Source: a virus. From it: DNA of 25,489 nucleotides. Numbering within the stretch: position 1 is the first letter of the stretch; every line of letters starts with the position of its first letter. Below the pieces are notes generated by a model. The model saw only the letters and a program-made list of their open reading frames with translations, did no database searches and was not told where the DNA came from. Below are positions 1,836-18,487 of the stretch, piece after piece. The DNA lies in the IMG/VR virus record IMGVR_UViG_3300024518_002651, positions 1 to 25,489 of that record; one strand, written 5' to 3'. A program made the translations under genes and the position numbers.

Positions 1836-1843
1836 GGCGGGCC

Positions 1844-3115: not shown

Positions 3116-3126
3116 CGGTGGCCTCC

Positions 3127-3933: not shown

Positions 3934-5741
3934 GGCGTGAACGCGCCTCGGTCGTAGCCGGCGCCGCGCCGGTCGCGGTCGAGCTCGCGGTTGACGACCT
4001 TGACGAGCTCGTGAGCGTGACGCTCGAATAGGCCGGGGTCGTCGAGGTTGCCCTCGACAACCATGAGCGGGCCGTTGACGGTGAGGCCGCCGCCGGCGGC
4101 GACCGGAGCGAACGGGGTGGCCTCGCCGGCGTTGACCTTGTGCGTCGGGAGGATGGTCTCGCCGCCATGCACGACGGCGAGCTGCGGGGCGCCTCGAGGG
4201 CCGGGGACTCGGCCGCCGGCGTCGTAACCGAGGACGCCGCCGACGGCGCCGAAGATGCCTCCGCCGAGCTTGGCGCCGGCGCCGATGAGCTCGTCGATCG
4301 GGCCGAGCGCCTTGTCCGCCGCGGCGCCGATGGCGTCGAGCTTGTCGACGATCCATTGCGCGACGGCCTCGATAGCAGACTTGACGCCGTTCCATGCGGT
4401 GCGGGCGAGCTCGGGGATGGACGTGAATAGGTCGATGACGGTGGTGATGGGGGTGATGATGAACGTGTCGAACAGTCCCGAAATTGTGGAGAACACGCCG
4501 CCGAGAAACCCGGTGATGTTGTTCCAAATCTCTGTCGTTTTCGCCCAGATGGCGTCCCAATTCTGGATGATGAGACCGATGACGAGGCCGATGCCGCCGG
4601 TGAAGATGCCGAGGATGTACGGCCACCATTGCACAAAGAAATTCGAGATCGCGTTCCACACGTCGGAGGTGATGCGCTTGACGTCCTCCCATCGGGCGGC
4701 GAACCATGCGGCGAGCTCGCCGGCGGCCATCTTGACCCAGTCCCAGGCGGCGGCGAGCTTCTCGACGATGAGGTCCCAATTCTTCCAGATGAGAATTCCG
4801 GCGGCGACGATGGCGAGAGCGACGAGGACCCAAGGATTGGCGGCGAGGAGCTTGAGGGCGCCGCCGAGCGCTTTGACGGCGAAGGCAACCTTGGTGAACA
4901 TGAACGCCATTGCGACGCCGATCACGACGTATTTCATGCCCTCGGGGCCGAGCTGGCGGGTGATGCCGAGGAGCGCGGAGAGAACGGGGAGGAGGCCGGT
5001 GCCGAGCTGGGCTTGCATGTCGCGCCATTGGGCGCCAACGATCTTCGATGAGTTTGCGACGCCGTCGGAGGTGGCGGCGAAATCGCCGGCGACGTTGGCG
5101 GTTTGCTCCATGATGAGCTCGTAGGTGGCGAGCTGCTTGGCGTTGGCGGAGAGCTCCTCGCCCTCGGTCGCGAGACCCATCTCGAGCGCTTTGGTCTTGA
5201 CGGTCGCCATGTCGAGAATCACGCCGTATTTTCGGAGCGGCTCAAACGAACCGATGAGACCCGAATTGATGGACTCGGTGACCTCTTGGGTTGAGGCGTT
5301 CCAGGCGGAACCCATATCGGTCGCGCGGCCGATGAGCTCGTTGGTGAACCGGGCGGCGTCGCGTTCGGCGGCGCCGGAGCCGACGAATATGTTGCCGATC
5401 TGCGCGCCCATCTGGCGGAACTCTGACTCGGCGAGGCCGAAGGTCTCATTTGCTGAGGCGGCGAGGGCGTCGACCTCGCCGCGGGCCTCACCGAACGCGA
5501 GGCCGGTGACGTTGGTGGCCTCCTCGAGGTCGGAGGCCTGGTCGATCATTTGGCGGCCGAATTGGGTGGCGATGGCGGCCGCGCCGAGGTTCGCCATTTT
5601 CGAGCCGAAACCGTCCTTGAACGACGAGCCGAACTTGCCGCCGGCGGCGGTGCCGCGCTGCTTGAGGCCTCGCTCGAATTTCGAGTATTCGCCAACGACG
5701 TCAACCTCGACGGTGCCGGCGTTACCGGCTTCTAGGCCCAT
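3930..5741 (-). CDS. Tape measure protein
   Basis: A 603-residue protein starting at 5741 (MGLEAGNAGTVEVDVVG) with a GAGGAGG ribosome site. It fixes tail length and lines the tail tube before DNA ejection. The N-terminal 250 residues are helical, with blocks such as QASDLEEATNVTGLAFGEA and IGSFEPLRKYGVILD that are typical of the tape measure family. Hydrophobic segments lie at about 268-290, 303-320 and 373-393, followed by Trp-rich amphipathic helices (NWDAIWA, EIWNNI) and a Gly-rich C-terminus with a YDAGGRVPGPRG motif. At roughly 1.5 Å per residue a tail near 90 nm is expected, which is short. It overlaps the frameshifted chaperone by 20 bp and the Dit gene by ATGA. Confidence 0.95.
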   Translation of the reverse strand: MGLEAGNAGTVEVDVVGEYSKFERGLKQRGTAAGGKFGSSFKDGFGSKMANLGAAAIATQFGRQMIDQASDLEEATNVTGLAFGEARGEVDALAASANETFGLAESEFRQMGAQIGNIFVGSGAAERDAARFTNELIGRATDMGSAWNASTQEVTESINSGLIGSFEPLRKYGVILDMATVKTKALEMGLATEGEELSANAKQLATYELIMEQTANVAGDFAATSDGVANSSKIVGAQWRDMQAQLGTGLLPVLSALLGITRQLGPEGMKYVVIGVAMAFMFTKVAFAVKALGGALKLLAANPWVLVALAIVAAGILIWKNWDLIVEKLAAAWDWVKMAAGELAAWFAARWEDVKRITSDVWNAISNFFVQWWPYILGIFTGGIGLVIGLIIQNWDAIWAKTTEIWNNITGFLGGVFSTISGLFDTFIITPITTVIDLFTSIPELARTAWNGVKSAIEAVAQWIVDKLDAIGAAADKALGPIDELIGAGAKLGGGIFGAVGGVLGYDAGGRVPGPRGAPQLAVVHGGETILPTHKVNAGEATPFAPVAAGGGLTVNGPLMVVEGNLDDPGLFERHAHELVKVVNRELDRDRRGAGYDRGAFTP

Positions 5742-6428
5742 CGCTCGCCTCCTCTCGTCGTGGTGTCTTGATCGGGATATGTCGGGCTATGTCGGCCCTC
5801 GACGCGGCCGGCGGTCGCCGGCGTTCGTCGTTGGGTCGACGGTACTTGATGGGCTTGGGCGCGCCGGACTCCTTGCCGCCGGCGGCCATGTAGGCGGTCC
5901 GGTTGTTCTGGCCGAGCTGCTCGAGGATGAGCGCGAGGAGCTCCTCGACGTGTGACCATCGGTCGAGGGTGGTGCGACGCTCGGCGGTGACGGCGTCGGC
6001 GAGGAGCTCGAGGTCGACGGTGTCGAGCTGCTCGAGCTCGCTGATTGGCTGGCCGGTGGCGACCGCGAGCGCGGTTAGGGCTTGGGCGGCCGCCGGCGTC
6101 CCAAAGGGACTTCGCGCTCGTCGATGTCGTCGACCCAGTCGGCGAGCCAGTCGCCGAACGTCGCCTCGAGGCCGCGCTCGTGGCAGAGGTGGTGATGTAC
6201 GGCCCACATGGTGCCCTCTGCCGGCGGGACGGTGCCCTTGAAATGGCGTTCGGCGGCGACCATGGAAACCGGGCGGAGCGGGACCTCGAGGTCGTCGGCG
6301 CGGTCGATGCCGTCGACGTAGTAGACGTCGACGACGTGGCGGGTGCGGTCGGCCGGGACCTCGGCGGCGTCGGCGGTGTCGCGGGCGCGGCCGCCGTCGA
6401 GGTCGGGCTTGGCGTCCTTGCCACTCAC
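5722..6428 (-). CDS. Tail assembly chaperone, long form made by -1 frameshift (G-T type)
   Basis: This is the predicted fusion product. Translation starts with the short chaperone, slips back one base at 6102-6108 and continues in the frame GTPAAAQALTALAVATG to a TAA at 5722. The product would be about 235 residues. The distal part holds a helical stretch (GQPISELEQLDTVDLEL, EELLALILEQLGQNN) and a basic tail. Its last 20 bp overlap the tape measure gene. In lambda-like phages the G and GT proteins bind the tape measure and recruit tail tube subunits, and the same gene order and frame geometry are seen here. Frameshift efficiency cannot be judged from sequence. Confidence 0.8.
6075..6428 (-). 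CDS. Tail assembly chaperone, short form (G type)
   Basis: A 117-residue frame beginning with GTG at 6428 (reads MSGKDAKPDLDGGRA); the GTGA overlaps the stop of the major tail gene, and no ribosome site is seen, so it is probably translated by coupling. The central part has the pattern FKGTVPPAEGTMWAVHHHL and a Trp-rich acidic helix (FGDWLADWVDDIDE), as in actinophage tail chaperones. The zero frame ends in RRRPPKP shortly after the slippery site. Position between the major tail protein and the tape measure is the classic location. Confidence 0.85.
   Translation of the reverse strand: MSGKDAKPDLDGGRARDTADAAEVPADRTRHVVDVYYVDGIDRADDLEVPLRPVSMVAAERHFKGTVPPAEGTMWAVHHHLCHERGLEATFGDWLADWVDDIDEREVPLGRRRPPKP
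6102..6108 (-). other. Slippery heptamer CCCTTTG for -1 ribosomal frameshift
   Basis: On the minus strand the short chaperone frame reads GAA GTC CCT TTG GGA. The heptamer C CCT TTG fits the X XXY YYZ rule exactly, and slipping by -1 gives CCC TTT GGG ACG, the frame of the downstream helical domain. It lies about 25 bases before the zero-frame stop at 6075. It is the pyrimidine counterpart of the lambda GGGAAAG site. GC-rich sequence follows and could supply a stimulatory structure. Confidence 0.85.
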
Positions 6429-7003
6429 GAGTCCGCCGCGAACGCGGTGGTATCGGACGTGAACAGGAACCAGGGGTCGACGCCGTCCTCACCGAGGGCC
6501 TCGAGCTCGACGGGGAGCTCGGCGAGGTCGGTGCGGGTGAGGTTGGTTTCGAGCGAGCTGGTGGTGATGCACTTGGGGATGACGTAGCGGTCGGTGATGG
6601 TGCCGTCGGTGATGTCGATGACGAGCGACCATTCGGTCACGGTGCCGGCGGCGTGCGGCGTGAACTTGCGGCCGGTGCCGGCGGCGGCGACGGCGCCGCC
6701 TCCTCCGGCGGTGCGGAGGGCCTTGGTGTTCCACTGCTCGAGCGCAAACGCGGCCTTCGCCATGCGGGCGGTCTCGAGGATGCGGATGGGATAGAACGCC
6801 TGCCAGGCTTGCTTGCGTTCGATGGTGGGCTCGTCGGTGAACGTGACGCCGTCCTCGGTCGTGTAGCCGAGCTCGATGTAGTCGGTGTCGAGGGTCGAGT
6901 CGTGAGCCGACGGGAGGTTCGACGACACATCTGAGTATGCGGCGATGTAGACGGAACCGGTGCCGGCGACGCGGGTCTCGGCGGTGTCTTTGGCGTTGGG
7001 CAT
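6425..7003 (-). CDS. Major tail protein (tail tube subunit)
   Basis: A 192-residue protein starting at 7003 (MPNAKDTAETRVAGTGSV) behind an AAGGAG site in the duplicated leader. Features such as GSVYIAAYSDVSSNLPS near the N-terminus, LGYTTEDGVTFTDEPTIE and a central helix (TARMAKAAFALEQWN) match the tail tube fold used by siphovirus major tail proteins. Position directly before the frameshifting chaperones supports this. A long 334-bp gap with hairpin array A and the leader precedes it, so its transcription or message stability may be set separately from the upstream joining genes. Confidence 0.85.
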   Translation of the reverse strand: MPNAKDTAETRVAGTGSVYIAAYSDVSSNLPSAHDSTLDTDYIELGYTTEDGVTFTDEPTIERKQAWQAFYPIRILETARMAKAAFALEQWNTKALRTAGGGGAVAAAGTGRKFTPHAAGTVTEWSLVIDITDGTITDRYVIPKCITTSSLETNLTRTDLAELPVELEALGEDGVDPWFLFTSDTTAFAADS

Positions 7004-7055
7004 GGTGGCGCTCCTTGCTCGGGGGTCTCGGCCATGGCGGCGGCCGGGTTGGTCG
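6998..7055 (-). repeat. Duplicated 58-bp leader with ribosome site, copy 2
   Basis: These bases are identical to 2294-2351 and carry the AAGGAG site of the major tail protein gene. The rest of the 334-bp gap at 7004-7337 holds array A (7182-7328) and about 126 bp of unassigned sequence in between, where I see no clear promoter or ORF. Confidence 0.85.
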
Positions 7056-7181
7056 ACATCGTAGGCACGAGGCCGGCCACGATGGGCGGATCGGCCGCTC
7101 TGTGGCGCTCTCCGCTGCGAACGGTCGCCGGCGGTCGTGTCATGGCGGACGAGCTGCTCGAGGCTGTAGCCGGCCGACGGG

Positions 7182-7328
7182 GCGCCGCGAATCGCGATCG
7201 CGAAACCCGTTTTCGCGAACACGATTTCGGGCGCCGCGAATCGCGATCGCGAAACCCGTTTTCGCGAACACGATTTCGGGCGCCGCGAATCGCGATCGCG
7301 AAACCCGTTTTCGCGAACACGATTTCGG
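7182..7328 (-). repeat. Hairpin repeat array A: three 49-bp units
   Basis: Units lie at 7182-7230, 7231-7279 and 7280-7328 and are identical to one another. Each has two palindromes on the plus strand, TCGCGATCGCGA and TTCGCGAA, that belong to a larger 37-nt imperfect hairpin with a 16-bp stem, one T·T mismatch and loop ACGGG on the coding strand. The array begins 9 bp after the tail terminator stop and ends 178 bp before the major tail start. All three copies carry the GAACACG variant. No U-tract follows, so a simple intrinsic terminator is not indicated. Confidence 0.95.
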
Positions 7329-7337
7329 CGGGCGGTG

Positions 7338-7784
7338 TTAGGTGCGGGCGGCTCGGATGGTGAGGTCGACGGTGGCGATGTAGCGCTCGCGGGCGGCGTT
7401 GCGGGCCGTCATGAGGTCGGAGTCGGGGAGATACCGGAACGAGGACGAGCTCGAGCCGGAGACCGAGCCGTCGGCGTGGGAGCCGTCCTCGATGTCGTCG
7501 AGCGCGGCGGAGCACTCGGCCGCGAGCTCGCGGGCTTGGGCCTTGGTGCCGCCGTAGGCCTCGACCTGTATGACGGCGGTGTCGATGCCGCGGCGAGCTC
7601 GAGGCGGGCCGCCGAGGCGGAACAGACGAACGAACCGGCCGGTGGGCGCCGGCTTGGGGGTGACGGTGTAGATCGGCTCGTTGCCTTGGGCGTCGACGTC
7701 GAGGAGGCCGGTGACGGCGGCGACGCCGTCGAGGTAGGTGCGGACGAGGAGCTCGGCGTCGGGGAGGGTCGGCGAGGTGGGCAT
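7338..7784 (-). CDS. Tail terminator protein
   Basis: A 148-residue protein starting at 7784 (MPTSPTLPDAELLVRTYL) with an AAGGAG site 5 nt upstream. The pattern of an N-terminal helix DAELLVRTYLDGVAAV, a central RFVRLFRLGG strand and an IQVEAYGGTKAQARELAA helix followed by a final strand is that of the tail terminator family, which caps the tail tube and joins it to the head. It is the last gene before the major tail protein, the usual place. The start 8 bp after the neighbour's stop fits an operon. Confidence 0.8.
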   Translation of the reverse strand: MPTSPTLPDAELLVRTYLDGVAAVTGLLDVDAQGNEPIYTVTPKPAPTGRFVRLFRLGGPPRARRGIDTAVIQVEAYGGTKAQARELAAECSAALDDIEDGSHADGSVSGSSSSSFRYLPDSDLMTARNAARERYIATVDLTIRAART

Positions 7785-7792
7785 GGTGCTCC

Positions 7793-8113
7793 TTAGTTCT
7801 CGATGAACCGGGTGCCGAACTCGCGCGCCGCCAGTCTCATCGGGGCGTCGGGCTGGCGGTCGACGGTGCCCCATTCGACGAAATGGGCGCGGCTCGCGGT
7901 GGTGCCGACGCGGGCGCCGGTGCGGGTCGGTTCGTGGAATAGCTCGCGTTTGTATTCGCGCGCCGGCGGGTCGTCGGCGAGGCCGGTCTCGGCGAGCTTG
8001 GTGGCGACGCGCCGCTCGAGGCGGCCGGCGGTGGCGGTGAACATACGGCGGCCGCCGCGGGTGCGCGGGAACCGGCGCTCCCATGCTTTGCGGTAGCGGA
8101 CGCGGACACCCAT
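7793..8113 (-). CDS. Neck or tail completion protein (HK97 gp10-like)
   Basis: A 106-residue basic protein starting at 8113 (MGVRVRYRKAWERRF), 3 bp after the upstream stop. It includes RVGTTASRAHFVEWGT followed by APMRLAAREF, the conserved C-terminal signature of HK97 gp10-type proteins (alanine-His-x-Val-Glu-x-Gly-Thr, then Pro-x-x-Arg-x-Ala). These sit in the head-tail joining ring. Order between the stopper and terminator genes agrees. Confidence 0.8.
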   Translation of the reverse strand: MGVRVRYRKAWERRFPRTRGGRRMFTATAGRLERRVATKLAETGLADDPPAREYKRELFHEPTRTGARVGTTASRAHFVEWGTVDRQPDAPMRLAAREFGTRFIEN

Positions 8114-8116
8114 GGG

Positions 8117-8443
8117 TCAGACGGTCCGCCGGGCGCGGATGCGGACGTAGTCGAGGACGGAGCCGCCGGAGCGTTCGTCGGGCGGGCCGATGGTCTCGTA
8201 GGTGCGGCCGTCGACGGTGAGGCGGTCCGAGCTCGTGACGGTGGTGCCGGCGGGGAAGTAGAACCGGACCTCGTCGGAGTCGGCCGAGCCGAGGCCGTCG
8301 CGGGTCTCGTCGGTCGTGACGGGCTGATAGTCGCCGATGGCGGTGGCGCCGGCGAACGATGACGGGGTCGGGTTGCCGTATTCGTCGGCGACGACGGTGG
8401 CGGTGTAGATGGTGACGTTGTACGGGAACCGGTGCCAGCTCAT
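8117..8443 (-). CDS. Head-tail stopper or adaptor protein
   Basis: A 108-residue beta-rich protein starting at 8443 (MSWHRFPYNVTIYTATV). Its ATG follows the upstream TAG without a gap, and a GAGG site lies in the end of the previous gene. A pattern of NVTIYTA near the N-terminus, DEVRFYFPAGTTVTSSDRLTVDGRTYE in the middle and DYVRIRAR at the end fits the small head closure proteins that plug the connector (SPP1 gp16 or HK97 gp7-like). Assignment rests on size, strand pattern and gene order. Confidence 0.75.
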   Translation of the reverse strand: MSWHRFPYNVTIYTATVVADEYGNPTPSSFAGATAIGDYQPVTTDETRDGLGSADSDEVRFYFPAGTTVTSSDRLTVDGRTYETIGPPDERSGGSVLDYVRIRARRTV

Positions 8444-9055
8444 CTAGGACCTCACGCGCATGGAGCCGACGCGGTTGCGGCGCCAGTGTCGGAGCCGGCG
8501 GAGCTGGTCCTTGCTGAGGCCGTCCTTGCTCGAGCCGCCGGCGCCGAACGAGACCGACCGGTCGCCGAGGGACTCTTGTGCGACGGCGTTGGGGTTGGCG
8601 ATGCGGACGGCGGCGACCTCGGCGACTACGGCGGTGAGCTCGGCGGGGATGTCGGCGGAGGCGTAGCCGTAGCTGTAGGTGACGACGATGTCGATGCCGC
8701 GGTCGGGCCATCTGATCGTGGAGCCGTCCCAGAGGTGCGGGTTGTCGAGGCCGGTGTAGCGGCGGCGGAGCTGGCCGAGGACGGTGAACGTGTAGTCGGC
8801 GGCGGTGAGCGCGACGCCGTCGACGGTGATGGCGTCGACGGAGCGGACGGGATAGTTGGGGAGCTCGAGGAGGACCTCGCCGGTGCCCTCGAGGGTGACG
8901 TCCTCGTCGTCGGTCTCGCCGAGGGTGAACCCGACGAGGTCGCCGAGGACGATGCCCTCGGCTCGGGTGATGAGGCGGTCGACGCGGTCGGAGCTGCTCG
9001 AGAGGTCGACGCCGAGGAGGTCCTCGAGGTCGGTTCGGGTTGCGGCGGTCGGCAT
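8444..9055 (-). CDS. Head-tail connector (adaptor) protein
   Basis: A 203-residue protein starting at 9055 (MPTAATRTDLEDLLGVDL). It has an N-terminal helical part (SDRVDRLITRAEGIVLGDL), a beta segment with LLELPNYPVRSVDAITVDG, and a C-terminal helical part with AVVAEVAAVRIANPNAVAQE. This matches the gp6/gp15-type adaptor that extends the portal. No good ribosome site precedes the ATG, and it lies only 47 bp beyond hairpin array B, so its initiation may be influenced by those structures. Confidence 0.8.
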   Translation of the reverse strand: MPTAATRTDLEDLLGVDLSSSSDRVDRLITRAEGIVLGDLVGFTLGETDDEDVTLEGTGEVLLELPNYPVRSVDAITVDGVALTAADYTFTVLGQLRRRYTGLDNPHLWDGSTIRWPDRGIDIVVTYSYGYASADIPAELTAVVAEVAAVRIANPNAVAQESLGDRSVSFGAGGSSKDGLSKDQLRRLRHWRRNRVGSMRVRS

Positions 9056-9102
9056 GGTCGCGAGCGTAACCGACCGGGGAGAGCTCGAACGCGGAACCAG
9101 GG

Positions 9103-9200
9103 CGCCCGCGAATCGTGATCGCGAAACCCGTTTTCGCGAACACGATTTCGGGGGCCGCGAATCGCGATCGCGAAACCCGTTTTCGCGAACACGATGTCGG
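9103..9200 (-). repeat. Hairpin repeat array B: two 49-bp units
   Basis: Units lie at 9103-9151 and 9152-9200. The first reads AATCGTGATCGCG where most copies read AATCGCGATCGCG; this change creates a U-A pair opposite the U of the GAACACG arm, so the stem is kept. The second has GATGTCGG instead of GATTTCGG at its edge. It directly adjoins the 56-bp hairpin pair at 9201-9304, and both together fill most of the 285-bp gap between capsid and connector genes. Confidence 0.95.
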
Positions 9201-9304
9201 GGCGGACGCGGAGCGGCCGCCGGCGATGCAGACGCCCGGCGGCCGCTCGATTTCGGGGCGGACGCGGAGCGGCCGCCGGCGATGCAGACGCCCGGCGGCC
9301 GCTC
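9201..9304 (-). repeat. Two 56-bp repeats, each with a perfect 13-bp-stem hairpin
   Basis: Each copy contains GAGCGGCCGCCGG, a 12-nt loop CGATGCAGACGC and the exact reverse complement CCGGCGGCCGCTC. Hairpins lie at 9211-9248 and 9267-9304, spaced by 56 bp. They begin 36 bp after the major capsid stop. The linker between them ends in GATTTCGG, the same tail as the 49-bp unit, which suggests one element inserted next to or within the other. The stems are very stable but no U-tract follows, so transcript protection or Rho-type effects are more likely than classic termination. Confidence 0.9.
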
Positions 9305-9340
9305 GCTCCCGAGGGCGGCGGGCCGCTCAGGAGGTCGGGG

Positions 9341-10267
9341 TCACGTCTTGGCGTGCGCGAACGCGACGCCGCACTCGTCGCGCATTTCGGTGTAGCCGTA
9401 GAGCGCGTCGATGGTGACCTTGATGCCGAGGAGGTCGGTGTCGTAGGACGCGGTGACGCGAACGGCGAGACCGGAGGCGGGGTCGGTCACGACGGTCTGG
9501 CGGACGCCGGGCGCTCGGTTCTGCGGGAGCGACCGCATTGCCATCAAGCCGAATTGTGGGTTGCCGGCGATGGACGTGGCGCCGACGCCGGAGGCCGGCA
9601 CGAGCTGGCTCATGTAGACGTCGAAACCGTAGGCGCGGCCGAGCTCGCCCTCGCGGACGGCGTCGGGCTGGCTGTTCGCGAAATAGGACTCGAGGTTGGA
9701 GTCGCCGAGGAGGTCGACCTCGCCGGCCGAGCCGACGATGAAGAACCGGCCGGCGGTGGGGCAACGGGCCTCGTTCAGCGTCTGGCGGGCGGTGAGGAGC
9801 GACGTGCGTGACGCGGCGACGCCGGGCGTGCCGACGATGGACGAGAAACCGGAGTAGAGGCCGAGGACGTCGGACTCGATCTGCTCGGCCATCGCGGTAA
9901 TCGCCTCGGCCGTGTGGACGTCGACGGTGCCCTGCTGGAGCTGGGACTGTGCGACGGCGGGGTCCTCGACGACGAACGAAACCTCCTTGTGCTTGGTGAG
10001 CTCGACGTTGATGGAGCTCGAGCTCGGGTTCTGGAGGGTGACGGCGGTGCCGACGGCCTTGTCGTTCACCGAGAACGAACCGGGGACGGCGATGTTGAGG
10101 ATGTCGCCGTGGTTGAACGTGGCGTCGACGTCGTTGTCCTTGGTGATGAGCCGCGTGATGACGTGGTTGGCTCGGAGCGAGGCGAGGGCCTCGTTGGCCC
10201 AAATCTCGGGGATGAAGCTGTCGAGGGAGCCGGCGCCGGAGGCGGCGGCGGAGAGGGTGGCAACCAT
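9341..10267 (-). CDS. Major capsid protein (HK97 fold, P22-coat-like subgroup)
   Basis: A 308-residue protein starting at 10267 (MVATLSAAASGAGSLDSF) with a strong AAAGGA site. The N-terminus contains FIPEIWANEALASLRANHV and the pattern GDILNIAVPGSFSVNDKAV, typical of coat proteins that begin with an Ile-Pro-Glu-x-Trp segment. The P-domain helix (TAEAITAMAEQIESDVLGLY) and the A-domain region with RFFIVGSAGEVDLLGD and FDVYMSQLVP follow in the expected order. It follows the scaffold gene by 33 bp. No protease cleavage region or delta domain is visible at the N-terminus, in line with a separate scaffold. Two repeat families sit just downstream. Confidence 0.93.
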   Translation of the reverse strand: MVATLSAAASGAGSLDSFIPEIWANEALASLRANHVITRLITKDNDVDATFNHGDILNIAVPGSFSVNDKAVGTAVTLQNPSSSSINVELTKHKEVSFVVEDPAVAQSQLQQGTVDVHTAEAITAMAEQIESDVLGLYSGFSSIVGTPGVAASRTSLLTARQTLNEARCPTAGRFFIVGSAGEVDLLGDSNLESYFANSQPDAVREGELGRAYGFDVYMSQLVPASGVGATSIAGNPQFGLMAMRSLPQNRAPGVRQTVVTDPASGLAVRVTASYDTDLLGIKVTIDALYGYTEMRDECGVAFAHAKT

Positions 10268-10300
10268 GGTGGTTGAGGTCCTTTCGGAGGATGGTGGTGG

Positions 10301-10984
10301 CTAGTCGTCCTCGATGAGACCGGCCGCGGCCGCCGCGAGAATCGCCGGCTTGTTCGCCTCGTAGAACGCCTGATCGCGTAGCTGCGAGCGCTTGAACTTG
10401 ACCGGGTCGTCGCCTCGCGGGCCGGGCGGGACTCGTCCGGCCGGCGCCGGCGGGGCCGGCGGGTCGGTCGAGGGCGCCGTTGCTGCGAGGTACGGCTTGG
10501 CTGTGACGAGCTCGTCGAGAGCGGCGACCATCGCGTCGCCGTCAATGTTGCCCGCTGCGTCGAGAAACCGGTCGAGGTTGCCGAGCATCGCGGGAGCATC
10601 GCTCGGGTCGCGGAGCTTGCCGGCGGCCTTGGCTGTCGCCTCGGCTCGGAGGAGGACCTCGTTGGCCTCTCCTCGAGCTTCGGCTCGGCCGGCTTGCCGG
10701 GCCTCCTCGACCGCTCGCTCTTGCTCTCCGAGCTGCGCGGTGCGTGCCTTCTCGAGCTCGCTGTCGAGGCGTGTGGCTCGGGCCTCGGCTTCGCGCCGTG
10801 CCTTTCGCTCGGCCTCGAGGGCTTTCTTGCCGCCCTCGCCGAGCTCGACGTCGCCGGCCGCGCTGGTGGCGGGCGGTTCGGCCGGTGCCGGCGGCGGTGT
10901 TGCGGCCGGCGGCGGTGTGCTCGGTGGGGGTGTGGCGCTCGGGTCTGGCTCTCGCGGTGTCTTGTCGGGTTGCGGGTCGGCCAT
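10301..10984 (-). CDS. Capsid scaffold protein
   Basis: A 227-residue protein starting at 10984 (MADPQPDKTPREPDPSA) after a GGAGGAGG site. Residues 1-55 are Pro and Ala rich and disordered. Residues of about 60-130 form a charged coiled coil with Ala/Glu/Arg heptads (GKKALEAERKARREAEARA, EEARQAGRAEARGEANEVL). A second Pro-rich linker leads to a basic C-terminus (VKFKRSQLRDQAF), where scaffolds bind coat protein. This layout and the place directly before the capsid gene identify it. The 318-bp gap before it holds array C (11111-11306); the remaining 126 bp show no clear promoter. Confidence 0.85.
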   Translation of the reverse strand: MADPQPDKTPREPDPSATPPPSTPPPAATPPPAPAEPPATSAAGDVELGEGGKKALEAERKARREAEARATRLDSELEKARTAQLGEQERAVEEARQAGRAEARGEANEVLLRAEATAKAAGKLRDPSDAPAMLGNLDRFLDAAGNIDGDAMVAALDELVTAKPYLAATAPSTDPPAPPAPAGRVPPGPRGDDPVKFKRSQLRDQAFYEANKPAILAAAAAGLIEDD

Positions 10985-11110
10985 CGCGGCCCTCCTCCTC
11001 GTAGCTCGGCCGGCGTCGCGCCGGCGGGCCTGTTGTGCCTGGCGGTCGCCGGCGTCGAGCTGGCGGCCGCTGCGAGGGAGCATAGGCCGACGCGGTGCCG
11101 GCGGCGGGGG

Positions 11111-11306
11111 ACCTCGCGAATCGCGATCGCGAAACCCGTTTTCGCGAACACGATTTCAGGGGCCGCGAATCGCGATCGCGAAACCCGTTTTCGCGAACGC
11201 GATTTCGGGGGCCGCGAATCGCGATCGCGAAACCCGTTTTCGCGAACACGATTTCGGGCGCCGCGAATCGCGATCGCGAAACCCGTTTTCGCGAACGCGA
11301 TTTCAG
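11111..11306 (-). repeat. Hairpin repeat array C: four 49-bp units
   Basis: Units lie at 11111-11159, 11160-11208, 11209-11257 and 11258-11306. The arm variants alternate GAACACG, GAACGCG, GAACACG, GAACGCG, which points to growth by duplication of a 98-bp pair. The last three bases of the upstream gene, its TGA stop at 11303-11305, lie inside the edge of the fourth unit. The array ends 126 bp before the scaffold start. Confidence 0.95.
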
Positions 11307-11515
11307 AGGAGGCCGTCGGCGCGGAGGGCGGCGAGGTGGGCGCGTGCGGCGTCGCGGTCTGCGAGGGGGTCGTCGGCGACCTCGTCGTCGAGGGTGAGCT
11401 CGGCCGGCGGCGGGACGGCGAGCGAGACCGAGCTCGCGAACGAGCGGGCCGTCCAGTCGCCGAGCTCGCGCCGTGACTGCGGTCGGGTCGGTCGGGTGCC
11501 GTGCGGGTCGGTCAT
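11303..11515 (-). CDS. Small unknown protein between MuF and scaffold
   Basis: A 70-residue protein starting at 11515 (MTDPHGTRPTRPQSRR), whose ATGA overlaps the MuF-like gene stop. The N-terminus is basic, the middle carries a short hydrophobic stretch (SFASSVSLAVPPPAEL), and the C-terminus is acidic then Ala/Arg helical (DRDAARAHLAALRADGLL). No family is recognised. Its stop codon is supplied by repeat array C. The reading of the ATGA coupling and codon use support it as real, and its position suggests a minor head or accessory role. Confidence 0.7.
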   Translation of the reverse strand: MTDPHGTRPTRPQSRRELGDWTARSFASSVSLAVPPPAELTLDDEVADDPLADRDAARAHLAALRADGLL

Positions 11516-13776
11516 TGTGTGAATCCTTCGGGGAGGAGGAGCTCGGGGGCGACGTCGTCGTCCCATGGGATGCGCGACGAGGCGGGGACGTCGACGCCGG
11601 CGCGGTGGGCGGTGGCGACGATGCGGCTGTAGAGCTCCTCGTAGCTGGTGCCGGGGTCGTCGAGGTATTCGGGGACGAGCTCGGCGAGGCGGTCGCCGGC
11701 GTCGAGGCGGAGCTCGGTGGGGTGATTGCGGAGGCCGTACTCGAGGCCGCGGAGCTCCTCCTCGAACGATTGAAACGAGAGGCGCCAGGGCGGCGGGTCG
11801 CCGGTGCGGGCGGCGAGGGCGTCGCGGAGGTAGAGCTCGGCCTCGTCGACGTCGACCTCGCGGCCGAGCTGGGCGAGGCGGCCGGCGACGTCGAGGTCGT
11901 CTTTGCCGATGACGTCGGACGGTAGGAACCGGGCCTCGGCGGGGAGGTGGCCCTCGAGGAGGCCGTCGATGTCGAGGCGGCCGGAGTAGGCGCGTTCGCT
12001 CGGGAGCTTGCCGCGGCGGATGGCGCCGGCGGCCTCGTAGCGGCGGGTCTGATCGAGCCATTGCCTCATGGCGTCGTCGACGGAGAGGCCGGCGGCGGCG
12101 CCGTTGGATTCCATGAGCTGCGCGGCGACGTCGGGGGCGCTCGTGCCGTCGAACCATCGGCGGCGGAGCCGCTTGAGCTCGTCCTCGTTGAGCTCGTTGA
12201 GCCAGTCCCATTCGGCGGTTCGGGTGCGTGGTGGCCTCGAGAGGGCGGGTACATCCCATGTGTCGAGCTGCTCGAACGCCTCGAGCTGGGCGCGGGTGGC
12301 GGCGTCGCCGACGACGCGGCGGACTTCGGCGACCTGGGCGCGGGCGGCGACAATCTCGTCGGGGGCGACGCCGTAGTCGTCGGCGGCTTTGCGGACGATG
12401 GCGCTATCGGGGTCGTCGAGGGAACGGAGATAGGCGCGCTCTGCTCGCTGCTCGGCGATGCGGTCGGCGCGCTTGAGCTCGAGCTCGTCGATGATGACGG
12501 CGGGGTCGACGTTGCGGCGCTGCGCTGCTCGGATCACTGACGGCGTGTCGGGTGTCCAGCGGCCGGAACGGGCGGCCGGGGTTGGGGTGGCGACGTCGAC
12601 GGCGGCCGGTGTGACCTTCGGGGCGAGGTCGTCGGCGTCGACGGTGGGCGCTCGGCGGGCGAGGTCGCCGGCGTCGTCGACGGTGCCTGCGGTGGTGCGG
12701 GCGGCGGTGAAGGTGTGGCGCTCGTTGACGAGGACGGGGCCGAGCTCGCCGTGTGTGCGGACGGTGGGCGCCTCGAGCGGTGGGAGCTCGAGGGCGACGC
12801 CGGGCCGGTCTACGGCGAAACGGCGGCCGGTGCCGGCGCCGGGGGCGTCCTCGGCGAACCGGGCGAGGGCGGCGACGGCGGCCGAGTCGGGTGTCTGGCG
12901 GAGGACCTCGTCGGCGGCGGTGATGTTGCCGCGCTCGCGGCGGAGCCGGTCGCCGAGGCGGCGAGCTCGTGCCGGGTCGGCCTCGACGCCGAGCTCGAGC
13001 TCGAGCTCCTCGGCGCGCAGGAGCGAGCGTTGCCGGCGGCGGTTGGCGGCGGCGCGCTGGGCGGCCGGCGCTCGACGAGCTCGAGCTCTCGAGGCGCCGA
13101 GCTTGTTGATGGTGCCGTCGCGCTTGAGCTCGCGGTAGAGCTCGCGGTTGACGATGCGGCCGCCGTCGTAGTCGCCGACGATGGGCGCGATGCGACAGTC
13201 GCAGCGGGTGTGGATGGGCATGAGCTCGGCGGTGTGATAGCGCTGCGTCGACGCAACGCGGCAGAGGTCGCACGAGGCGCCGGTGAGGACGCGGCGGTAG
13301 CCGTTGACGTCGGGGTGTCGGTCCATCGCCTCGGCGGCGGCCTGGCGGTGAGCGAGGGCGATGTCGGCCTCGGTCTGGGCGCCGGCGCGGGTGGCGGCCT
13401 CGACCATGGCGGCGTCGTACGGTTTGCCGGCGGCGAGCGCTTTGCGGACGGCGATGCCGGGCCGCCGGTAGACGTCGAGGCCGAAGGTGCCGCGGAGCCG
13501 GTCGACGGTGAGCTCGGCGACGTCGAGGGGGTCGATGCCGGGCGGCGGCGTCCTCGAGACTGTCGCGACGTAGCCGTCGACGAACTGCTCGGTGATGACG
13601 CCGATGTCGGCGTTGGCGCCGTCGACGACCTCGAGGGCGGCGGCGGCGAACGTGTCGAGGCGGTCGGTGTCGGGGCCGCCGAGCTCGAGCCATAGTTGCT
13701 CGACGAACGTGCCGGTGCCGAGCCGGATGGCGTCGTAGCTGTCGCCGTAGACGCCGATGAGGTCCTCGGCGCTCAT
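11512..13776 (-). CDS. MuF-like minor head protein with long C-terminal extension
   Basis: A 754-residue protein starting at 13776 (MSAEDLIGVYGDSYD). The first 200 residues fit the minor head family that follows the portal in actinophages: helical, then a Cys/His metal site with C169-x2-C172 (GASCDLCR) and H189-x2-C192-x-C194 (HTRCDC). The family usually ends soon after. Here about 550 further residues follow: an Arg/Glu-rich helical segment at about 225-300, a Pro/Thr-rich linker at about 320-410, then helical blocks up to the end (FTQ). In some phages MuF proteins are fused to effector domains carried in the virion. No known toxin or enzyme motif is apparent in this tail, so its function is open. 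Confidence 0.8.
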   Translation of the reverse strand: MSAEDLIGVYGDSYDAIRLGTGTFVEQLWLELGGPDTDRLDTFAAAALEVVDGANADIGVITEQFVDGYVATVSRTPPPGIDPLDVAELTVDRLRGTFGLDVYRRPGIAVRKALAAGKPYDAAMVEAATRAGAQTEADIALAHRQAAAEAMDRHPDVNGYRRVLTGASCDLCRVASTQRYHTAELMPIHTRCDCRIAPIVGDYDGGRIVNRELYRELKRDGTINKLGASRARARRAPAAQRAAANRRRQRSLLRAEELELELGVEADPARARRLGDRLRRERGNITAADEVLRQTPDSAAVAALARFAEDAPGAGTGRRFAVDRPGVALELPPLEAPTVRTHGELGPVLVNERHTFTAARTTAGTVDDAGDLARRAPTVDADDLAPKVTPAAVDVATPTPAARSGRWTPDTPSVIRAAQRRNVDPAVIIDELELKRADRIAEQRAERAYLRSLDDPDSAIVRKAADDYGVAPDEIVAARAQVAEVRRVVGDAATRAQLEAFEQLDTWDVPALSRPPRTRTAEWDWLNELNEDELKRLRRRWFDGTSAPDVAAQLMESNGAAAGLSVDDAMRQWLDQTRRYEAAGAIRRGKLPSERAYSGRLDIDGLLEGHLPAEARFLPSDVIGKDDLDVAGRLAQLGREVDVDEAELYLRDALAARTGDPPPWRLSFQSFEEELRGLEYGLRNHPTELRLDAGDRLAELVPEYLDDPGTSYEELYSRIVATAHRAGVDVPASSRIPWDDDVAPELLLPEGFTQ

Positions 13777-14024
13777 GACGCCGGCGCCGCGAATCGTGTT
13801 CGCGAAACCCGTTTTCGCGAACGCGATTTCGGGGGCCGCGAATCGCGATCGCGAAACCCGTTTTCGCGAACGCGATTTCGGGGGCCGCGAATCGCGATCG
13901 CGAAACCCGTTTTCGCGAACGCGATTTCGAGGAGCTCGCCGGCCGCTCTAGACCGGGTCAGGGTCGTCGGGGTCGCCGGTGTCGCTAGTGGCGAGTGTCC
14001 GGCGGCCGGCGAGCTCGAGGTCAT
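13773..14024 (-). CDS. Possible 83-residue protein encoded mostly by hairpin repeats
   Basis: The ORF starts at 14024 with an ATGA overlapping the portal stop and ends at 13773 with a TGA inside the ATGA that starts the MuF-like gene. About 30 ordinary residues (MTSSSPAAGHSPLATPAT) are followed by three repeat units read in three successive frames, giving FAKTGFAIAIRG, NRVRENGFRDRDSR and KSRSRKRVSRTRFA. The product would be strongly basic at its C-terminus. Double coupling suggests ribosomes may cross the array, but this geometry can arise by chance because the repeat is open in all frames. Whether the peptide is functional is unknown. Confidence 0.4.
   Translation of the reverse strand: MTSSSPAAGHSPLATPATPTTLTRSRAAGELLEIAFAKTGFAIAIRGPRNRVRENGFRDRDSRPPKSRSRKRVSRTRFAAPAS
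13784..13930 (-). repeat. Hairpin repeat array D: three 49-bp units
   Basis: Units lie at 13784-13832, 13833-13881 and 13882-13930, all with the GAACGCG variant. The first has GTGTTCGCG where others have GCGATCGCG, which repairs the usual T·T mismatch in the stem and puts a C·A (or G·U on the other strand) at the neighbouring variable pair. The array ends 7 bp before the MuF-like start codon and begins 90 bp after the portal stop. Confidence 0.95.
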
Positions 14025-15472
14025 GGCGCGGCGGCGACGGGCTCGGCCGGCTCGGCCGGTGGTGTCTCGGCGAGCTCGGCGGCGGCCGGCGGTAGCGCCG
14101 GGCGGCGCGGTGCGGCCGCTGCGGCGGAGAGGGTGGCGCGGGCGGCCTGGGCGCGCCAGCGGGCGACCTCTTGGGGGCTCGCGCCGTAGAGGGTCCAGAG
14201 GGCCTCGTTGGGCACGCCGAGGGTGCCGAGCTTGACGAGGGCGTCGACGAGCTCGCCGGTGCCTTTACTCTCGGGGTCTTTCCAGATGACCTCGAGGGAA
14301 TCGTCGGCGGCGCGGGCGTCGCCCATCGCGGCGAGGCCGAGGCGGGTGACCTCCTCCCATGACTCGCCGAACGAGAGGGCGCGCTTGGAGACCTTCGCGA
14401 CGAGGCCGGTCTCGGTGCTCTTGAGCGACTCGCCGGAGGGGAACGCGCCGGACTGGCCGAGGAGGTAGTGAGGCGGGGTTCTCGAGATGGCGGCGAGGTG
14501 TTGGACGTCGGCCTCGACGGCTTTGATGTACGGGCCGAGGTCGGTGGCGCCGAACTCGCCGAACTTTGTGCCGGCGTCCTCGGCGAGCCAGAGCTTGTCG
14601 ACGGCGGCGTTGAACGGCTCGACGGCCTTGTTGGTCTCAGGGTCGACGGGGATGTCCATGCCGGTCGCCCATCGCTGGCGGAACGCGGCGAACCGGGCGG
14701 CGGTGGCGCGCCCAAAGATGGTCTCGTTGATGCGGTCGTTGATGTCGGTGATGCCTCCGGCGAGCTCGCTGCGGCCGCGCCTCGACATCCTCGAACGATT
14801 CATGAACGGGACAATGCTGACGACCTCGAGGGGATGCTCGAACGAGGAGCCGGGGTCGCCGGGGTCGGCGTGGGGTTCCCATTGGCCGCCGGGCTCGCGG
14901 CGCCACTTGTGAACCATGGCCGGCGCGCCGACGACGCCGGAGTCGGCCTCGACCTCGCGGCGGTCCAACATGACGACGGCGTAGTCGACGCCGTCCTCGC
15001 TGTAGGCCTTGATCGCGGCGCGGCGGCGGCGGGCGTGGCCGCCGGCGAGCTCGACGAAACATTGGCCGGGGTCCTCGACGGAGATGACCGGGCGGTCGTC
15101 GGCGGTCTCGCCGGGCCACACCATGACGGCGGCCTCGCCTCCGACGAGGGCCTCGGTGTGAACTTCGCCGTGCTCGGCGTCGAGGGCGTTGGGTTGCCAG
15201 AGGGTGCGCCAGACGTCGAGGTCGGCGCCGGCCTCCTCGCCGAACCGGATGCCGACGACGGTGAGGCGCTCGGCAACCGCGTCGACGATGAGCTCGCACC
15301 AATTCGACCGGGCGAGCTTCATGAGCCGGAGAAACTCGGCGCGGGCGCCGGCGGGTGCGTCGGCGAGCGGATGGTCGCCGGTGTAGTACCGGTCGAAATG
15401 CTGGTGTCGGCGGGCTTGGTCGGCGAGCTTCTCGAGGAGGTGCTTGCGCCATTCGTCGGGGGTGCGAGCCAT
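14021..15472 (-). CDS. Portal protein (SPP1 gp6-like)
   Basis: A protein of about 483 residues forming the DNA entry ring at one capsid vertex. It contains YYTGDHPLA near the N-terminus, ARSNWCELIVDAVAERLTV, a central beta region, and the helical stem and crown region with GGITDINDRINETIFGR and AAISRTPPHYLLGQSGAFPS, all typical of the family. The C-terminus is Ala/Pro rich. I prefer the ATG at 15472 (MARTPDEWRKHLLEKL), because AGGA lies 8 nt upstream. An ATG three codons earlier at 15481 (MAPMART) is possible but has no ribosome site. The gene ends in ATGA. Confidence 0.92.
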   Translation of the reverse strand: MARTPDEWRKHLLEKLADQARRHQHFDRYYTGDHPLADAPAGARAEFLRLMKLARSNWCELIVDAVAERLTVVGIRFGEEAGADLDVWRTLWQPNALDAEHGEVHTEALVGGEAAVMVWPGETADDRPVISVEDPGQCFVELAGGHARRRRAAIKAYSEDGVDYAVVMLDRREVEADSGVVGAPAMVHKWRREPGGQWEPHADPGDPGSSFEHPLEVVSIVPFMNRSRMSRRGRSELAGGITDINDRINETIFGRATAARFAAFRQRWATGMDIPVDPETNKAVEPFNAAVDKLWLAEDAGTKFGEFGATDLGPYIKAVEADVQHLAAISRTPPHYLLGQSGAFPSGESLKSTETGLVAKVSKRALSFGESWEEVTRLGLAAMGDARAADDSLEVIWKDPESKGTGELVDALVKLGTLGVPNEALWTLYGASPQEVARWRAQAARATLSAAAAAPRRPALPPAAAELAETPPAEPAEPVAAAP

Positions 15473-15493
15473 GGGCGCCATCCTAGACGCCGC

Positions 15494-16144
15494 TCATTGT
15501 GGGCGGTTGCGGATGCCGTCGGCGAGGTCCTCGCCGGCGTTGTCGATCGGGCGGTGTTCGATCGTGGCCGGTAGGCCGGAGGTGTTGCGGCCGTGATGGT
15601 GCCAGAGCCAGGTGACCTCGTCGTCGTTGGCGGTGCCGCCGATGCGCGCCATGGCGTGGAACATCGGGAAGTCTTGAACGTCGAACGCGCCGGTGCCGCT
15701 GGCGTCGGCCTGGTAGCCGCCGGTCTCGCGCATGGCGGCGAGGACGACGTCGGTGCGGACCAGGAACGTGATCGGGACGGTGTGCGGCGCCTCGAGGTCG
15801 TAGGGGCGGCCTCGGAATTGTGGGATGGGGTCGGTGCCGCCGATGACGTCGAACCATGCCCAGACGAGACCGGCGCCGCTCTCGCCGGCGACGTCGAGGA
15901 GGTGCTCGAGGTGGTGGGGGAGGAGCTCGTCGTCGTCGTCGAGAAACGCGAGCCAGTCGGGCGAGGTGGCGGCGGCGGCGTAGATGCCGCGGTTGCGGGT
16001 CGCCCATGCGCCGGCGCCGGCGTGATCGTTGACGATGGTGATGCCGTCGGCGGGGTGTGTCTGCTCGGCGACCGAGGCGACCGCGCGGCCGAGCATGCGC
16101 GAGCGGCGCGGGATGGTCGGGATGACGACGTTGACGGAGCTCAT
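15494..16144 (-). CDS. GT-A fold (GT2-like) glycosyltransferase
   Basis: A 216-residue protein starting at 16144 (MSSVNVVIPTIPRRS), where ATGA overlaps the epimerase stop. The N-terminal VVIPTIPRR strand, SVAEQTHPADGITIVND and the AFLDDDDELLPHHLEHLL segment (DxD-type metal and nucleotide-sugar site at about 69-72) define a GT2 family enzyme. The later FDVQDFPMFHAMARIGG contains an Asp that may be the catalytic base. It would transfer a sugar from a nucleotide donor. An internal-looking upstream ATG at 16159 is less likely given the ATGA link. Acceptor unknown; the neighbouring epimerase may make the donor sugar. Confidence 0.88.
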   Translation of the reverse strand: MSSVNVVIPTIPRRSRMLGRAVASVAEQTHPADGITIVNDHAGAGAWATRNRGIYAAAATSPDWLAFLDDDDELLPHHLEHLLDVAGESGAGLVWAWFDVIGGTDPIPQFRGRPYDLEAPHTVPITFLVRTDVVLAAMRETGGYQADASGTGAFDVQDFPMFHAMARIGGTANDDEVTWLWHHHGRNTSGLPATIEHRPIDNAGEDLADGIRNRPQ

Positions 16145-17139: not shown

Positions 17140-17771
17140 GGTGTGTGCTCCTTGATGGCGGTGACGATGACGGTGTTGTCGAGCTCGTCGACGGTGATGG
17201 TGAGCCAGCCGGCGCCGCGGACGGCGGCGGCGAACGAGCCGTCGGGCCATGCCCAGAGGTGGCCCTCAGAATGGCCGACGGCGGTCTCGCCTCGAGGTAC
17301 GGACGCGACGAGGCCGATGACGGCCGGGTCGCCGGCGAGCTCGGCGAGGACCTCGACGGGGTCGATGAGGTGCTCGAGGACCTCGAGGAGGGTGACGACG
17401 TAGCGGTCGCCGGCGCCGGCGGCGGGCGGTCGGGCGCCGTCGACGCCGGTGACGAGGACGTCGATGAGGTCGCGGTTGAACACGGCGACGCCGCGGTCGC
17501 CGGCGCCGGCGACGTTGGCCGGCGTGAAGTCGTAGCCGTAGAGGACGACGCCGGCGGTGACGGTGGGCTCGACGAGCTCAAGGAAACCGCCGTCGCCGGC
17601 GCCGATGTCGACGAGGGTGTCGGCGCCGGTGTACTCGAGGAGGGTGGTGGCGCGGTCGGCGGCGAGTTCGAGGCGGGGCCGGTGGACGGGGTCCTCGAGG
17701 TGGCGGGCTCGAGCTCGGCCGGCGTGCCATTCGCGGGTCGACCATTCGGCGGGGCCGGTGGTGCGGGTCAT
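17136..17771 (-). CDS. Class I SAM-dependent methyltransferase, second of two
   Basis: A 211-residue protein starting at 17771 (MTRTTGPAEWSTREWHA). Motif I is LVDIGAGDGGFLE at about 53-65; motif II-like YGYDFTPANV follows at 79-88; TLLEVLEHLIDPVEVLAE at about 128-144 is the post-III segment common in small-molecule and sugar methyltransferases. The ASVPRG and HLWAWPDGSF segments fit this group. Both ends have ATGA overlaps. Substrate likely a sugar or metabolite given the glycosyltransferases next to it, but this is inferred. It is bracketed by the 37-bp repeat, which suggests it was gained or moved as a unit. Confidence 0.85.
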   Translation of the reverse strand: MTRTTGPAEWSTREWHAGRARARHLEDPVHRPRLELAADRATTLLEYTGADTLVDIGAGDGGFLELVEPTVTAGVVLYGYDFTPANVAGAGDRGVAVFNRDLIDVLVTGVDGARPPAAGAGDRYVVTLLEVLEHLIDPVEVLAELAGDPAVIGLVASVPRGETAVGHSEGHLWAWPDGSFAAAVRGAGWLTITVDELDNTVIVTAIKEHTP

Positions 17772-18483: not shown

Positions 18484-18487
18484 GGGC

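What the first reader, a model, noticed from the sequence alone, without database searches (positions are those of the whole stretch)
7182..13930. Twelve-copy 49-bp hairpin repeat colonising four gaps of the virion module
Arrays of 3, 2, 4 and 3 units lie at 7182-7328, 9103-9200, 11111-11306 and 13784-13930. All units have the same orientation and exactly the same 49-bp length. Each holds a 37-nt inverted repeat with a 16-bp stem and 5-nt loop. None is seen in the packaging, glycan or distal tail regions. They flank portal/MuF, scaffold, capsid and major tail genes, where protein ratios matter most. This looks like a REP-like element adapted to, or parasitic in, a phage genome. Possible roles are setting mRNA levels, marking module joints for recombination, or binding a phage or host protein.
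Basis: partly seen in the sequence, partly recalled or inferred. Interest (0 to 1): 0.88.

Follow-up and report, generated by a model that had tools for sequence, protein, structure and literature searches.

The report
Reused hairpin arrays between virion genes
This uncultured phage has tandem copies of one 49-letter hairpin behind four of its head and tail genes, probably acting as leaky stop-or-protect signals in the messenger RNA; the sister phages examined lack it.

Summary
Twelve copies of one 49-bp unit, all in one orientation, form arrays of 3, 2, 4 and 3 at the stated places and nowhere else in this 25,489-base IMG/VR record. The virion genes run on the minus strand. The arrays lie behind the tail terminator, major capsid, g15 and portal genes, splitting the operon into portal | MuF-g15 | scaffold-capsid | neck-tail terminator | major tail. 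Three sister lineages with the same gene order lack the unit. They have gaps at the same junctions, except portal-MuF (7-15 nt). So the arrays are a derived gain. Searches of viral contigs, species genomes, phages, plasmids and Rfam gave only chance-like matches. In 13 of 25 relatives tested a strong, mostly unrelated hairpin stands directly behind the capsid gene. The anatomy (15-pair stems, 12-nt spacing, no U-tract, mostly near stop codons) resembles clustered U-less terminators. MuF starts 15 nt after the last stem, so that array at least must be leaky. Best reading: a spreading palindromic element working as leaky attenuators and 3'-end protectors. Function is inferred, not shown. A mainly selfish repeat or a protein-binding site remain open.

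The parts
7182..7328 (-). Array 1: three identical 49-bp units; first stem 13 nt after the stop of the tail terminator gene, last stem 186 nt before the major tail gene start
9103..9200 (-). Array 2: two 49-bp units between capsid and head-tail adaptor genes; first stem 144 nt after the capsid stop, last stem 55 nt before the adaptor start
9192..9305 (-). Two copies of a different 56-bp hairpin unit (probably the native post-capsid hairpin) whose repeat unit includes the edge of the 49-bp unit
11111..11306 (-). Array 3: four 49-bp units, beginning at the TGA stop of g15; last stem 134 nt before the scaffold start
13784..13930 (-). Array 4: three 49-bp units between portal and MuF; last stem 15 nt before the MuF start codon
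6425..7003 (-). Major tail protein gene, downstream of array 1
   Evidence: PHROG 117, E 1.7e-23
7338..7784 (-). Tail terminator gene, upstream of array 1
   Evidence: PHROG 123, E 7.8e-17
8444..9055 (-). Head-tail adaptor gene, downstream of array 2
   Evidence: PHROG 442, E 3.6e-25
9341..10267 (-). Major capsid gene, upstream of array 2
   Evidence: PHROG 283, E 3.2e-39
10301..10984 (-). Scaffold gene, downstream of array 3
   Evidence: PHROG 4708, E 8.8e-26
11303..11515 (-). g15 (my label), small conserved gene of unknown function whose stop codon touches array 3
   Evidence: 63% identical over query residues 3-70 in L014
11512..13776 (-).
   Evidence: PHROG 1522, E 1.1e-48
14021..15481 (-). 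Portal gene; another reading frame overlapping its 3' end stops at 13948, 17 bases before array 4
   Evidence: PHROG 104, E 2.4e-115; frames

Best explanation
A short palindromic element, private to this phage lineage as far as searched, entered the late operon and was multiplied as head-to-tail copies behind four genes. In the transcript each unit can fold into a hairpin of 14-15 pairs without a U-tract, and 2-4 hairpins stand 12 nt apart. I propose that the clusters work like U-less actinophage terminators in series: leaky attenuators that end some transcripts and protect the 3' ends of those that stop. They would thus step the mRNA level between portal, MuF-g15, scaffold-capsid, neck-tail terminator and major tail segments. 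Shown: units, positions, orientation, absence from three sister lineages, hairpins behind the capsid gene in many relatives. Inferred: hairpin formation in the cell, partial termination, 3'-end protection, effect on protein ratios.
For: Twelve co-directional copies in 4 of the 5 gaps longer than 40 nt among the 17 junctions of my gene list for 869-15481. First stem 13, 0 and 21 nt after the upstream stop for arrays 1, 3 and 4, the last counted from the frame ending at 13948. Three single units folded as mRNA do better than shuffles (z -2.9, -3.0, -3.7), and the mRNA strand folds better than the other strand in 11 of 12 units. Sisters L014/L015/L016, L017 and L116/L117 have the same gene order without the unit. 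Without array 3 the g15-scaffold gap is 126 nt, against 118, 121 and 189 in L015, L117 and L017. In 13 of 25 capsid loci tested the 80 nt after the capsid stop are strongly structured (z < -3), against 16 of 500 random windows; best 60-nt windows in L117, L017 and L015 reach z -9.9, -7.1 and -7.2 with unrelated sequences, and L117 has z -5.2 in the g15-scaffold gap. Hairpin clusters less than 15 bases apart and close behind stop codons are reported as intrinsic terminators, with a section headed as saying poly A/U trails are not necessary (PMC8355165: abstract, outline and passages; its reference list names phiC31 terminators without poly-U tails, title only). In mycobacteriophage Kampy scaffold, capsid and major tail are the most expressed genes at 60 minutes (PMC4626039 passages).
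Against: No expression data. No compensatory base changes: 0 pairs with a change on both sides among 7 distinct units, and covariation no better than shuffles. The first 80 nt after the stops at arrays 1 and 4 do not fold better than shuffles (z -1.4, -0.9). The two single units folded on the other strand also beat shuffles (z -2.9, -4.2), so folding does not separate RNA from DNA function, and the better fold of the mRNA strand rests on few independent changes. U-rich tails are absent (0 or 1 U in 8 nt, 12 of 12 units), and a classical terminator scan lists none at the arrays. Stems are longer than those in the cluster definition of PMC8355165. Array 4 leaves 15 nt before MuF, so strong termination there would silence MuF. 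Sisters do without the arrays, 12 of 25 capsid loci do not reach z -3, and the tail terminator-major tail gaps of three sisters have no strong hairpin (best z -1.1 to -2.3).
Confidence: 0.5

Rival explanations
1. A mainly selfish palindromic repeat: a REP-like or miniature element that spreads through non-coding gaps because insertions elsewhere are lost. Tandem growth comes from replication slippage at hairpins, and any effect on mRNA is incidental.
For: Absent from three sister lineages, near-identical copies, the same 6-base G+C linker (two variants) in all four arrays, base composition 61% G+C against 71% in the rest. The neighbouring 56-bp hairpin was also tandemly duplicated, including the edge of the 49-bp unit, so tandem duplication at hairpins occurs here.
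Against: No Y1 transposase in the record. No convincing copy in what was searched. All four arrays point the same way along the transcript, though chance gives that once in 8. Three of four arrays sit close behind stop codons, and the post-capsid place holds hairpins in many relatives too.
Confidence: 0.27
2. A double-stranded DNA binding site for a phage or host protein, like the stoperators of cluster A or the 17-bp palindromes of cluster O mycobacteriophages, for example silencing late genes in a lysogen.
For: Nearly invariant palindrome including the loop; 38 of 43 core columns are identical in 12 copies. The octamer TTTCGCGA occurs 12 times inside and 0 times outside the arrays on the same strand. 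Corndog of cluster O carries 34 palindromes for which a dimeric binder was suggested (PMC4351075 passages).
Against: The near identity may only reflect recent copying. Copies are strictly tandem at 49 bp and none lies outside the four virion gaps in this record. A repressor was not looked for, and the record seems to lack the early region.
Confidence: 0.12
3. Processing or stabilising hairpins only: long rods formed by paired neighbouring units are cut by a double-strand RNase or block 3' exonucleases, with no effect on transcription.
For: Arrays of 3 and 4 units fold globally into single long rods, 14 to 21 kcal/mol better than with pairs limited to 45 nt. MuF and the adaptor start 15 and 55 nt after the last stem, leaving little room for a promoter, so they are probably read through from upstream.
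Against: Local hairpins would form first during transcription (inference). The two-unit array alone folds as two local hairpins, though as a rod when the 56-bp repeats are included. No processing data.
Confidence: 0.08
4. Assembly artefact: the arrays or their copy numbers were made by the assembler.
For: The record comes from a virus contig collection without reads here; array 1 has three identical units that short reads could hardly resolve.
Against: Four arrays with different unique flanks and several unit variants, each between genes in the order found in three sister lineages. Only the exact copy numbers are in real doubt.
Confidence: 0.03

Closest known systems
U-less hairpin-cluster intrinsic terminators (clustered hairpins of PMC8355165; phiC31 early-region terminators without poly-U, known here by title only)
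   Same: Hairpins without U-tract, 12 nt apart, first stem 0-21 nt after the stop codon for three of four arrays, G+C-rich phage
   Different: One hairpin reused 12 times at four internal operon junctions; at least one array must be leaky; stems of 14-15 pairs are longer than the 2-10 pairs of that cluster definition; termination not tested
REP / BIME elements and REPINs of bacterial chromosomes
   Same: Short palindromic repeats behind genes, near-identical copies, clusters
   Different: No GTAG or CGTC tag in the units, no Y1 transposase in the record, all head-to-tail, in a phage, no convincing chromosomal copies found
PeSL promoter-stem-loop cassettes of T4-like phages
   Same: Small intergenic stem-loop modules repeated within phage genomes
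   Different: No promoter-like site found by a sigma-70 scan, late rather than early genes, tandem copies. The PeSL papers were not held; known from a passage citing them (PMC4503421) and recall
17-bp palindromes of cluster O, SAS/ESAS of cluster K and stoperators of cluster A mycobacteriophages
   Same: Short repeats at many places of a phage genome, function mostly unknown
   Different: By the passages read, those are 13-17 bp sites dispersed over the genome; here tandem 49-bp hairpins confined to four virion junctions of a partial genome
TIGR stem-loop arrays
   Same: Tandem hairpin units, found also in phages
   Different: No variable spacers here, and no Nop-domain protein in the record

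Membership tests
REP elements (GTAG / CGTC super-families) | Unpaired GTAG or CGTC tag at one end | tested here: not met
   No GTAG in or within 6 bases of any array; one CGTC, at the outer edge of the array 1 flank and not in a unit
REP elements (GTAG / CGTC super-families) | Palindrome of about 20-40 bp, extragenic, mostly behind genes | tested here: met
   37-bp palindrome in four gaps, three arrays close behind stop codons
REP elements (GTAG / CGTC super-families) | High copy number in a chromosome; RAYT (Y1-type) transposase proposed for the GTAG kind | tested here: inconclusive
   18 single matches in genome contigs without further similarity; no PF01797 in the record. The host and the rest of the phage genome were not available
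Classical intrinsic terminator | G+C-rich stem followed by a U-tract | tested here: not met
   0-1 U in the first 8 nt behind each of 12 stems; the scan lists no site at the arrays
U-less clustered hairpin terminator (PMC8355165) | Hairpins less than 15 nt apart, within 80 nt of the stop codon | tested here: met
   12 nt apart; 13, 0 and 21 nt from the stop for arrays 1, 3 and 4. Array 2 lies 144 nt from the capsid stop, behind the 56-bp hairpins
U-less clustered hairpin terminator (PMC8355165) | Short stems of 2-10 base pairs in the cluster definition | tested here: not met
   14-15 pairs per unit, interrupted by a mismatch; so 'works like', not 'is a'
U-less clustered hairpin terminator (PMC8355165) | RNA 3' ends or loss of reads at the hairpins | not testable with these tools
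   no expression data for this phage
PeSL cassettes | Early promoter combined with a stem-loop | tested here: inconclusive
   No sigma-70-like promoter in 6400-15500, with 0.3 expected in shuffles; the scan does not cover other promoter types
TIGR arrays | Variable spacers and a Nop-domain protein | tested here: not met
   Units invariant in 38 of 43 columns; no PF01798 in the record
Known Rfam family | Score above the gathering threshold | tested here: not met
   Four matches to microRNA models, all below their gathering scores, E 0.09-0.75

The most novel reading that the evidence does not exclude
A phage-private, self-copying hairpin is used as a standard regulatory part: tandem unit number (2 to 4) sets the strength of a leaky attenuator at each stoichiometry step of the virion operon. 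Slippage would make virion protein ratios tunable over short evolutionary times.
Probability: 0.17. Interest if true: 0.75.

Novelty: new variant of a known kind. Interest (0 to 1): 0.52.

Why it matters
How phages make hundreds of capsid and tail subunits but few portals and connectors from one late operon is only partly understood. If one reusable hairpin in counted tandem copies sets the steps, the question becomes testable by changing unit number. The frequent post-capsid hairpin, with mostly unrelated sequences across relatives, points to a control position that is easy to overlook because a U-tract is usually missing.

Tried and rejected
Host repeat: an exact 18-mer in genome contigs gave 18 single matches; all 18 were compared and share at most 30 of 49 bases with the unit. 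2 of 396 genomes of one phylum had a single match with 2 mismatches. Rejected as far as sampled; the host is unknown.

Other phages and plasmids: exact core 0 in viral contigs; the core with any loop, 4 loci with unrelated flanks; the left arm, 7 single matches, not examined further except in the hairpin scan. No blastn match in phages. 3 weak ones in plasmids, E 0.1-0.4; the best, in a Rhizobium gallicum plasmid, shares a run of about 20 bases and 28 of 43 core bases ungapped, was listed as one place, and lies in a stretch open over 270 and 316 codons in two reverse frames: taken as chance. Own and very near records are left out of these scans, so a close relative with the unit could be hidden. 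The DNA search of five sister records found nothing, but had no positive control; the pattern search of 11 records and genomes matched only in the 3 bacterial genomes, once each.

Known RNA family, Y1 transposase, Nop protein, peptidase S78: none in the record.

Covariation as proof of RNA function: uninformative.

An ORF through array 4 (13773-14024) with 4-base overlaps at both ends: kept as a curiosity. It passes through a different frame of each unit; shuffled units lack stop codons just as the real one does (1000 of 1000), so openness says nothing.

Recurring hairpins in relatives: 0 of the 72 other loci scanned (some overlap or lie in the same record) had a recurring hairpin by the criteria used; the window had 66 pairs, the number 12 like units give. 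Exact repeats of 22 bases or more occur in 13 of 60 loci; only those of L028, L037 and part of L053 were read, and they look like coding or low-complexity repeats.

The post-capsid test used 25 of the 55 capsid loci; near-duplicates and partial or weakly matching loci were left out beforehand. Its random controls are mostly coding windows, and its seeds are not exactly reproducible. One search shows the sequences behind the capsid stop for 29 loci.

A MuF protein scan of viral contigs confirmed no relative, though L014-L017 and L116/L117 encode one.

Literature: eight searches showed me no report of tandem reused hairpins in a virion operon; only their listings and the passages named in the report were read, apart from passages of PMC2988022, which added nothing used here.
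Full report
What is there. The window is the whole held virus record, 25,489 bases, 71% G+C. The 20-base core of the unit occurs 12 times and in none of 100 shuffles. The copies form four arrays with a strict 49-bp step: 3 at 7182-7328, 2 at 9103-9200, 4 at 11111-11306 and 3 at 13784-13930. All have one orientation. The virion genes lie on the minus strand, so the transcript reads the complement. In that sense each unit is a 43-base core plus a 6-base G+C linker. 38 of 43 core columns are invariant. The stem has 16 positions; 11 of 12 units form 15 pairs and one forms 14, around the loop ACGGG. The arrays are 61% G+C.

Where it is. Protein families place the arrays between tail terminator and major tail, capsid and head-tail adaptor, g15 and scaffold, and portal and MuF (g15 is my label, and MuF is named from recall). 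Of the 17 junctions in my gene list for 869-15481, five have gaps over 40 nt; the arrays fill four of them, and the fifth (2300-2461) has none. Junctions from 15481 to the end were not measured. The first stem begins 13 nt (array 1), 0 nt (array 3) and 21 nt (array 4, counted from the frame that stops at 13948; 94 nt from the portal ORF's own stop) behind the upstream stop codon. Array 2 stands 144 nt behind the capsid stop, after two copies of another hairpin.

It is a derived gain. Capsid and major tail searches gave relatives. L014/L015/L016, L017 and L116/L117 keep the same gene order as far as each record reaches, with capsid proteins 61-65% identical. I found the unit in none of them (pattern with up to 3 mismatches for L014-L017; hairpin and repeat scans; DNA search without positive control). 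Without array 3 the g15-scaffold gap is 126 nt, against 118, 121 and 189 in L015, L117 and L017; without array 1 the tail terminator-major tail gap is 187 nt, against 146, 87 and 84. In L014, L017 and L117 the portal stop lies 9, 7 and 15 nt before MuF; here the gap is 24 nt without array 4, counted from 13948. Alignments of the empty sites show the flanking genes in register.

Kin. The core is absent from other viral contigs, with four chance-like palindromes when the loop is left free and seven single matches to the left arm, not examined further. Genome contigs gave 18 single matches of an 18-mer without further similarity. Phages gave none. Plasmids gave three weak matches; the best was read and taken as chance. 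Rfam gave nothing at threshold. Own and very near records are left out of such scans, and this record is partial, so kin may be hidden.

How the copies grew. The linker, in two variants, is shared by the arrays, which suggests that units moved as multimers or 49-mers rather than as bare cores (inference). The 56-bp hairpin unit behind the capsid gene is duplicated in tandem, and its repeat unit carries the edge of the 49-bp unit. So that duplication probably followed the arrival of the 49-bp unit, and tandem duplication at hairpins is not special to it (inference).

A frequent place for a hairpin. In relatives of the capsid gene, 13 of 25 loci tested have strong structure (z below -3) in the first 80 nt after the capsid stop, against 16 of 500 random windows from the same loci; the other 12 range from z -2.9 to +1.6. 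The hairpins read are mostly unrelated in sequence (L031 and L040 share an outer stem) and mostly without a U-tract (L033 has a T-run). L117 also has one in the g15-scaffold gap (z -5.2), while the tail terminator-major tail gaps of three sisters have none that is strong (best z -1.1 to -2.3). The annotated Gordonia phage Aleemily has a like gene order, with gaps of 137 nt before scaffold and 84 nt before major tail.

Mechanism. The units lack U-tracts, and a standard terminator scan finds none at the arrays. A study of 13 bacterial genomes reports that clusters of hairpins less than 15 bases apart, near the stop codon, act as intrinsic terminators, and has a section headed that poly A/U trails are not necessary (PMC8355165, abstract, outline and passages). 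Its reference list names terminators without poly-U tails in actinophage phiC31 (title only). Its clusters are of short stems of 2-10 pairs, so the likeness is in arrangement, not in stem length. MuF starts 15 nt after the last stem of array 4 and the adaptor 55 nt after array 2, so array 4, and probably array 2, must let polymerase through. I therefore propose leaky attenuators that also protect 3' ends. The segments they mark include scaffold-capsid and major tail, the most expressed genes at 60 minutes in mycobacteriophage Kampy (PMC4626039 passages). All functional steps are inferred.

Evidence that does not help or goes against. Covariation is uninformative. The 80 nt behind the stops at arrays 1 and 4 fold no better than shuffles (z -1.4 and -0.9), those at array 3 and behind the capsid stop do (z -3.3 each). 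Three single units beat shuffles on the mRNA strand (z -2.9 to -3.7), but so do the two folded on the other strand (z -2.9, -4.2), so folding alone does not separate RNA from DNA function. The 56-bp hairpin gives z -2.0 alone and -3.9 in a 60-nt window. Uniform orientation over four arrays has a 1 in 8 chance.

Comparison. The unit is not a REP of the GTAG or CGTC kind: no tag in the units, no Y1 transposase in the record, only head-to-tail copies (PMC3733652, abstract and one section). The 17-bp palindromes of cluster O (PMC4351075), SAS of cluster K (PMC3203893) and stoperators (PMC5712189), each read in passages, are precedents for repeated short sites in phages, but differ in size and arrangement. 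TIGR stem-loop arrays have variable spacers and Nop proteins (PMC12045711 passages), which are absent here. Among 72 other loci scanned, some overlapping, none reuses a hairpin by my criteria; the window does. I rate this a new variant of a known kind.

Noticed in passing
2297-2351 and 7001-7055: An identical leader of 55 bases, with weaker similarity further upstream, stands before the major tail gene and before the gene at 1844-2299: a duplicated 5' leader or promoter region.
   Followed up: partly
L014 8036-8115, L117 8127-8221 and further capsid loci: A strong hairpin, usually without U-tract, directly behind the capsid stop in 13 of 25 relatives tested, although its sequence is mostly unrelated between lineages.
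   Followed up: partly
13773-14024: An 83-aa ORF starts in the portal stop (ATGA) and ends in the MuF start (ATGA), reading through array 4 in three frames; another frame ends at 13948 with an acidic tail that could belong to the portal.
   Followed up: partly
L015, L017 and L117, tail terminator to major tail gap: A shared GCGATACT motif before the major tail gene in three sisters looks like a promoter -10 region (seen); it is not evident in the window.
   Followed up: no
5-235: Tandem array of a 66-bp unit, 3.5 copies, near the end of the record.
   Followed up: no
16141-21337: Epimerase and methyltransferase genes and a weak glycosyltransferase match lie between packaging and portal genes, with a phage metallopeptidase gene at 18488-19030.
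   Followed up: no
23741-24397: C5-cytosine methylase-like gene (Pfam match below the curated cut-off) near the small terminase gene; three of the five variable core columns of the unit are C/T or G/A at CpG.
   Followed up: no
16995-17031 and 17782-17818: A 37-bp exact repeat among the sugar-modification genes.
   Followed up: no
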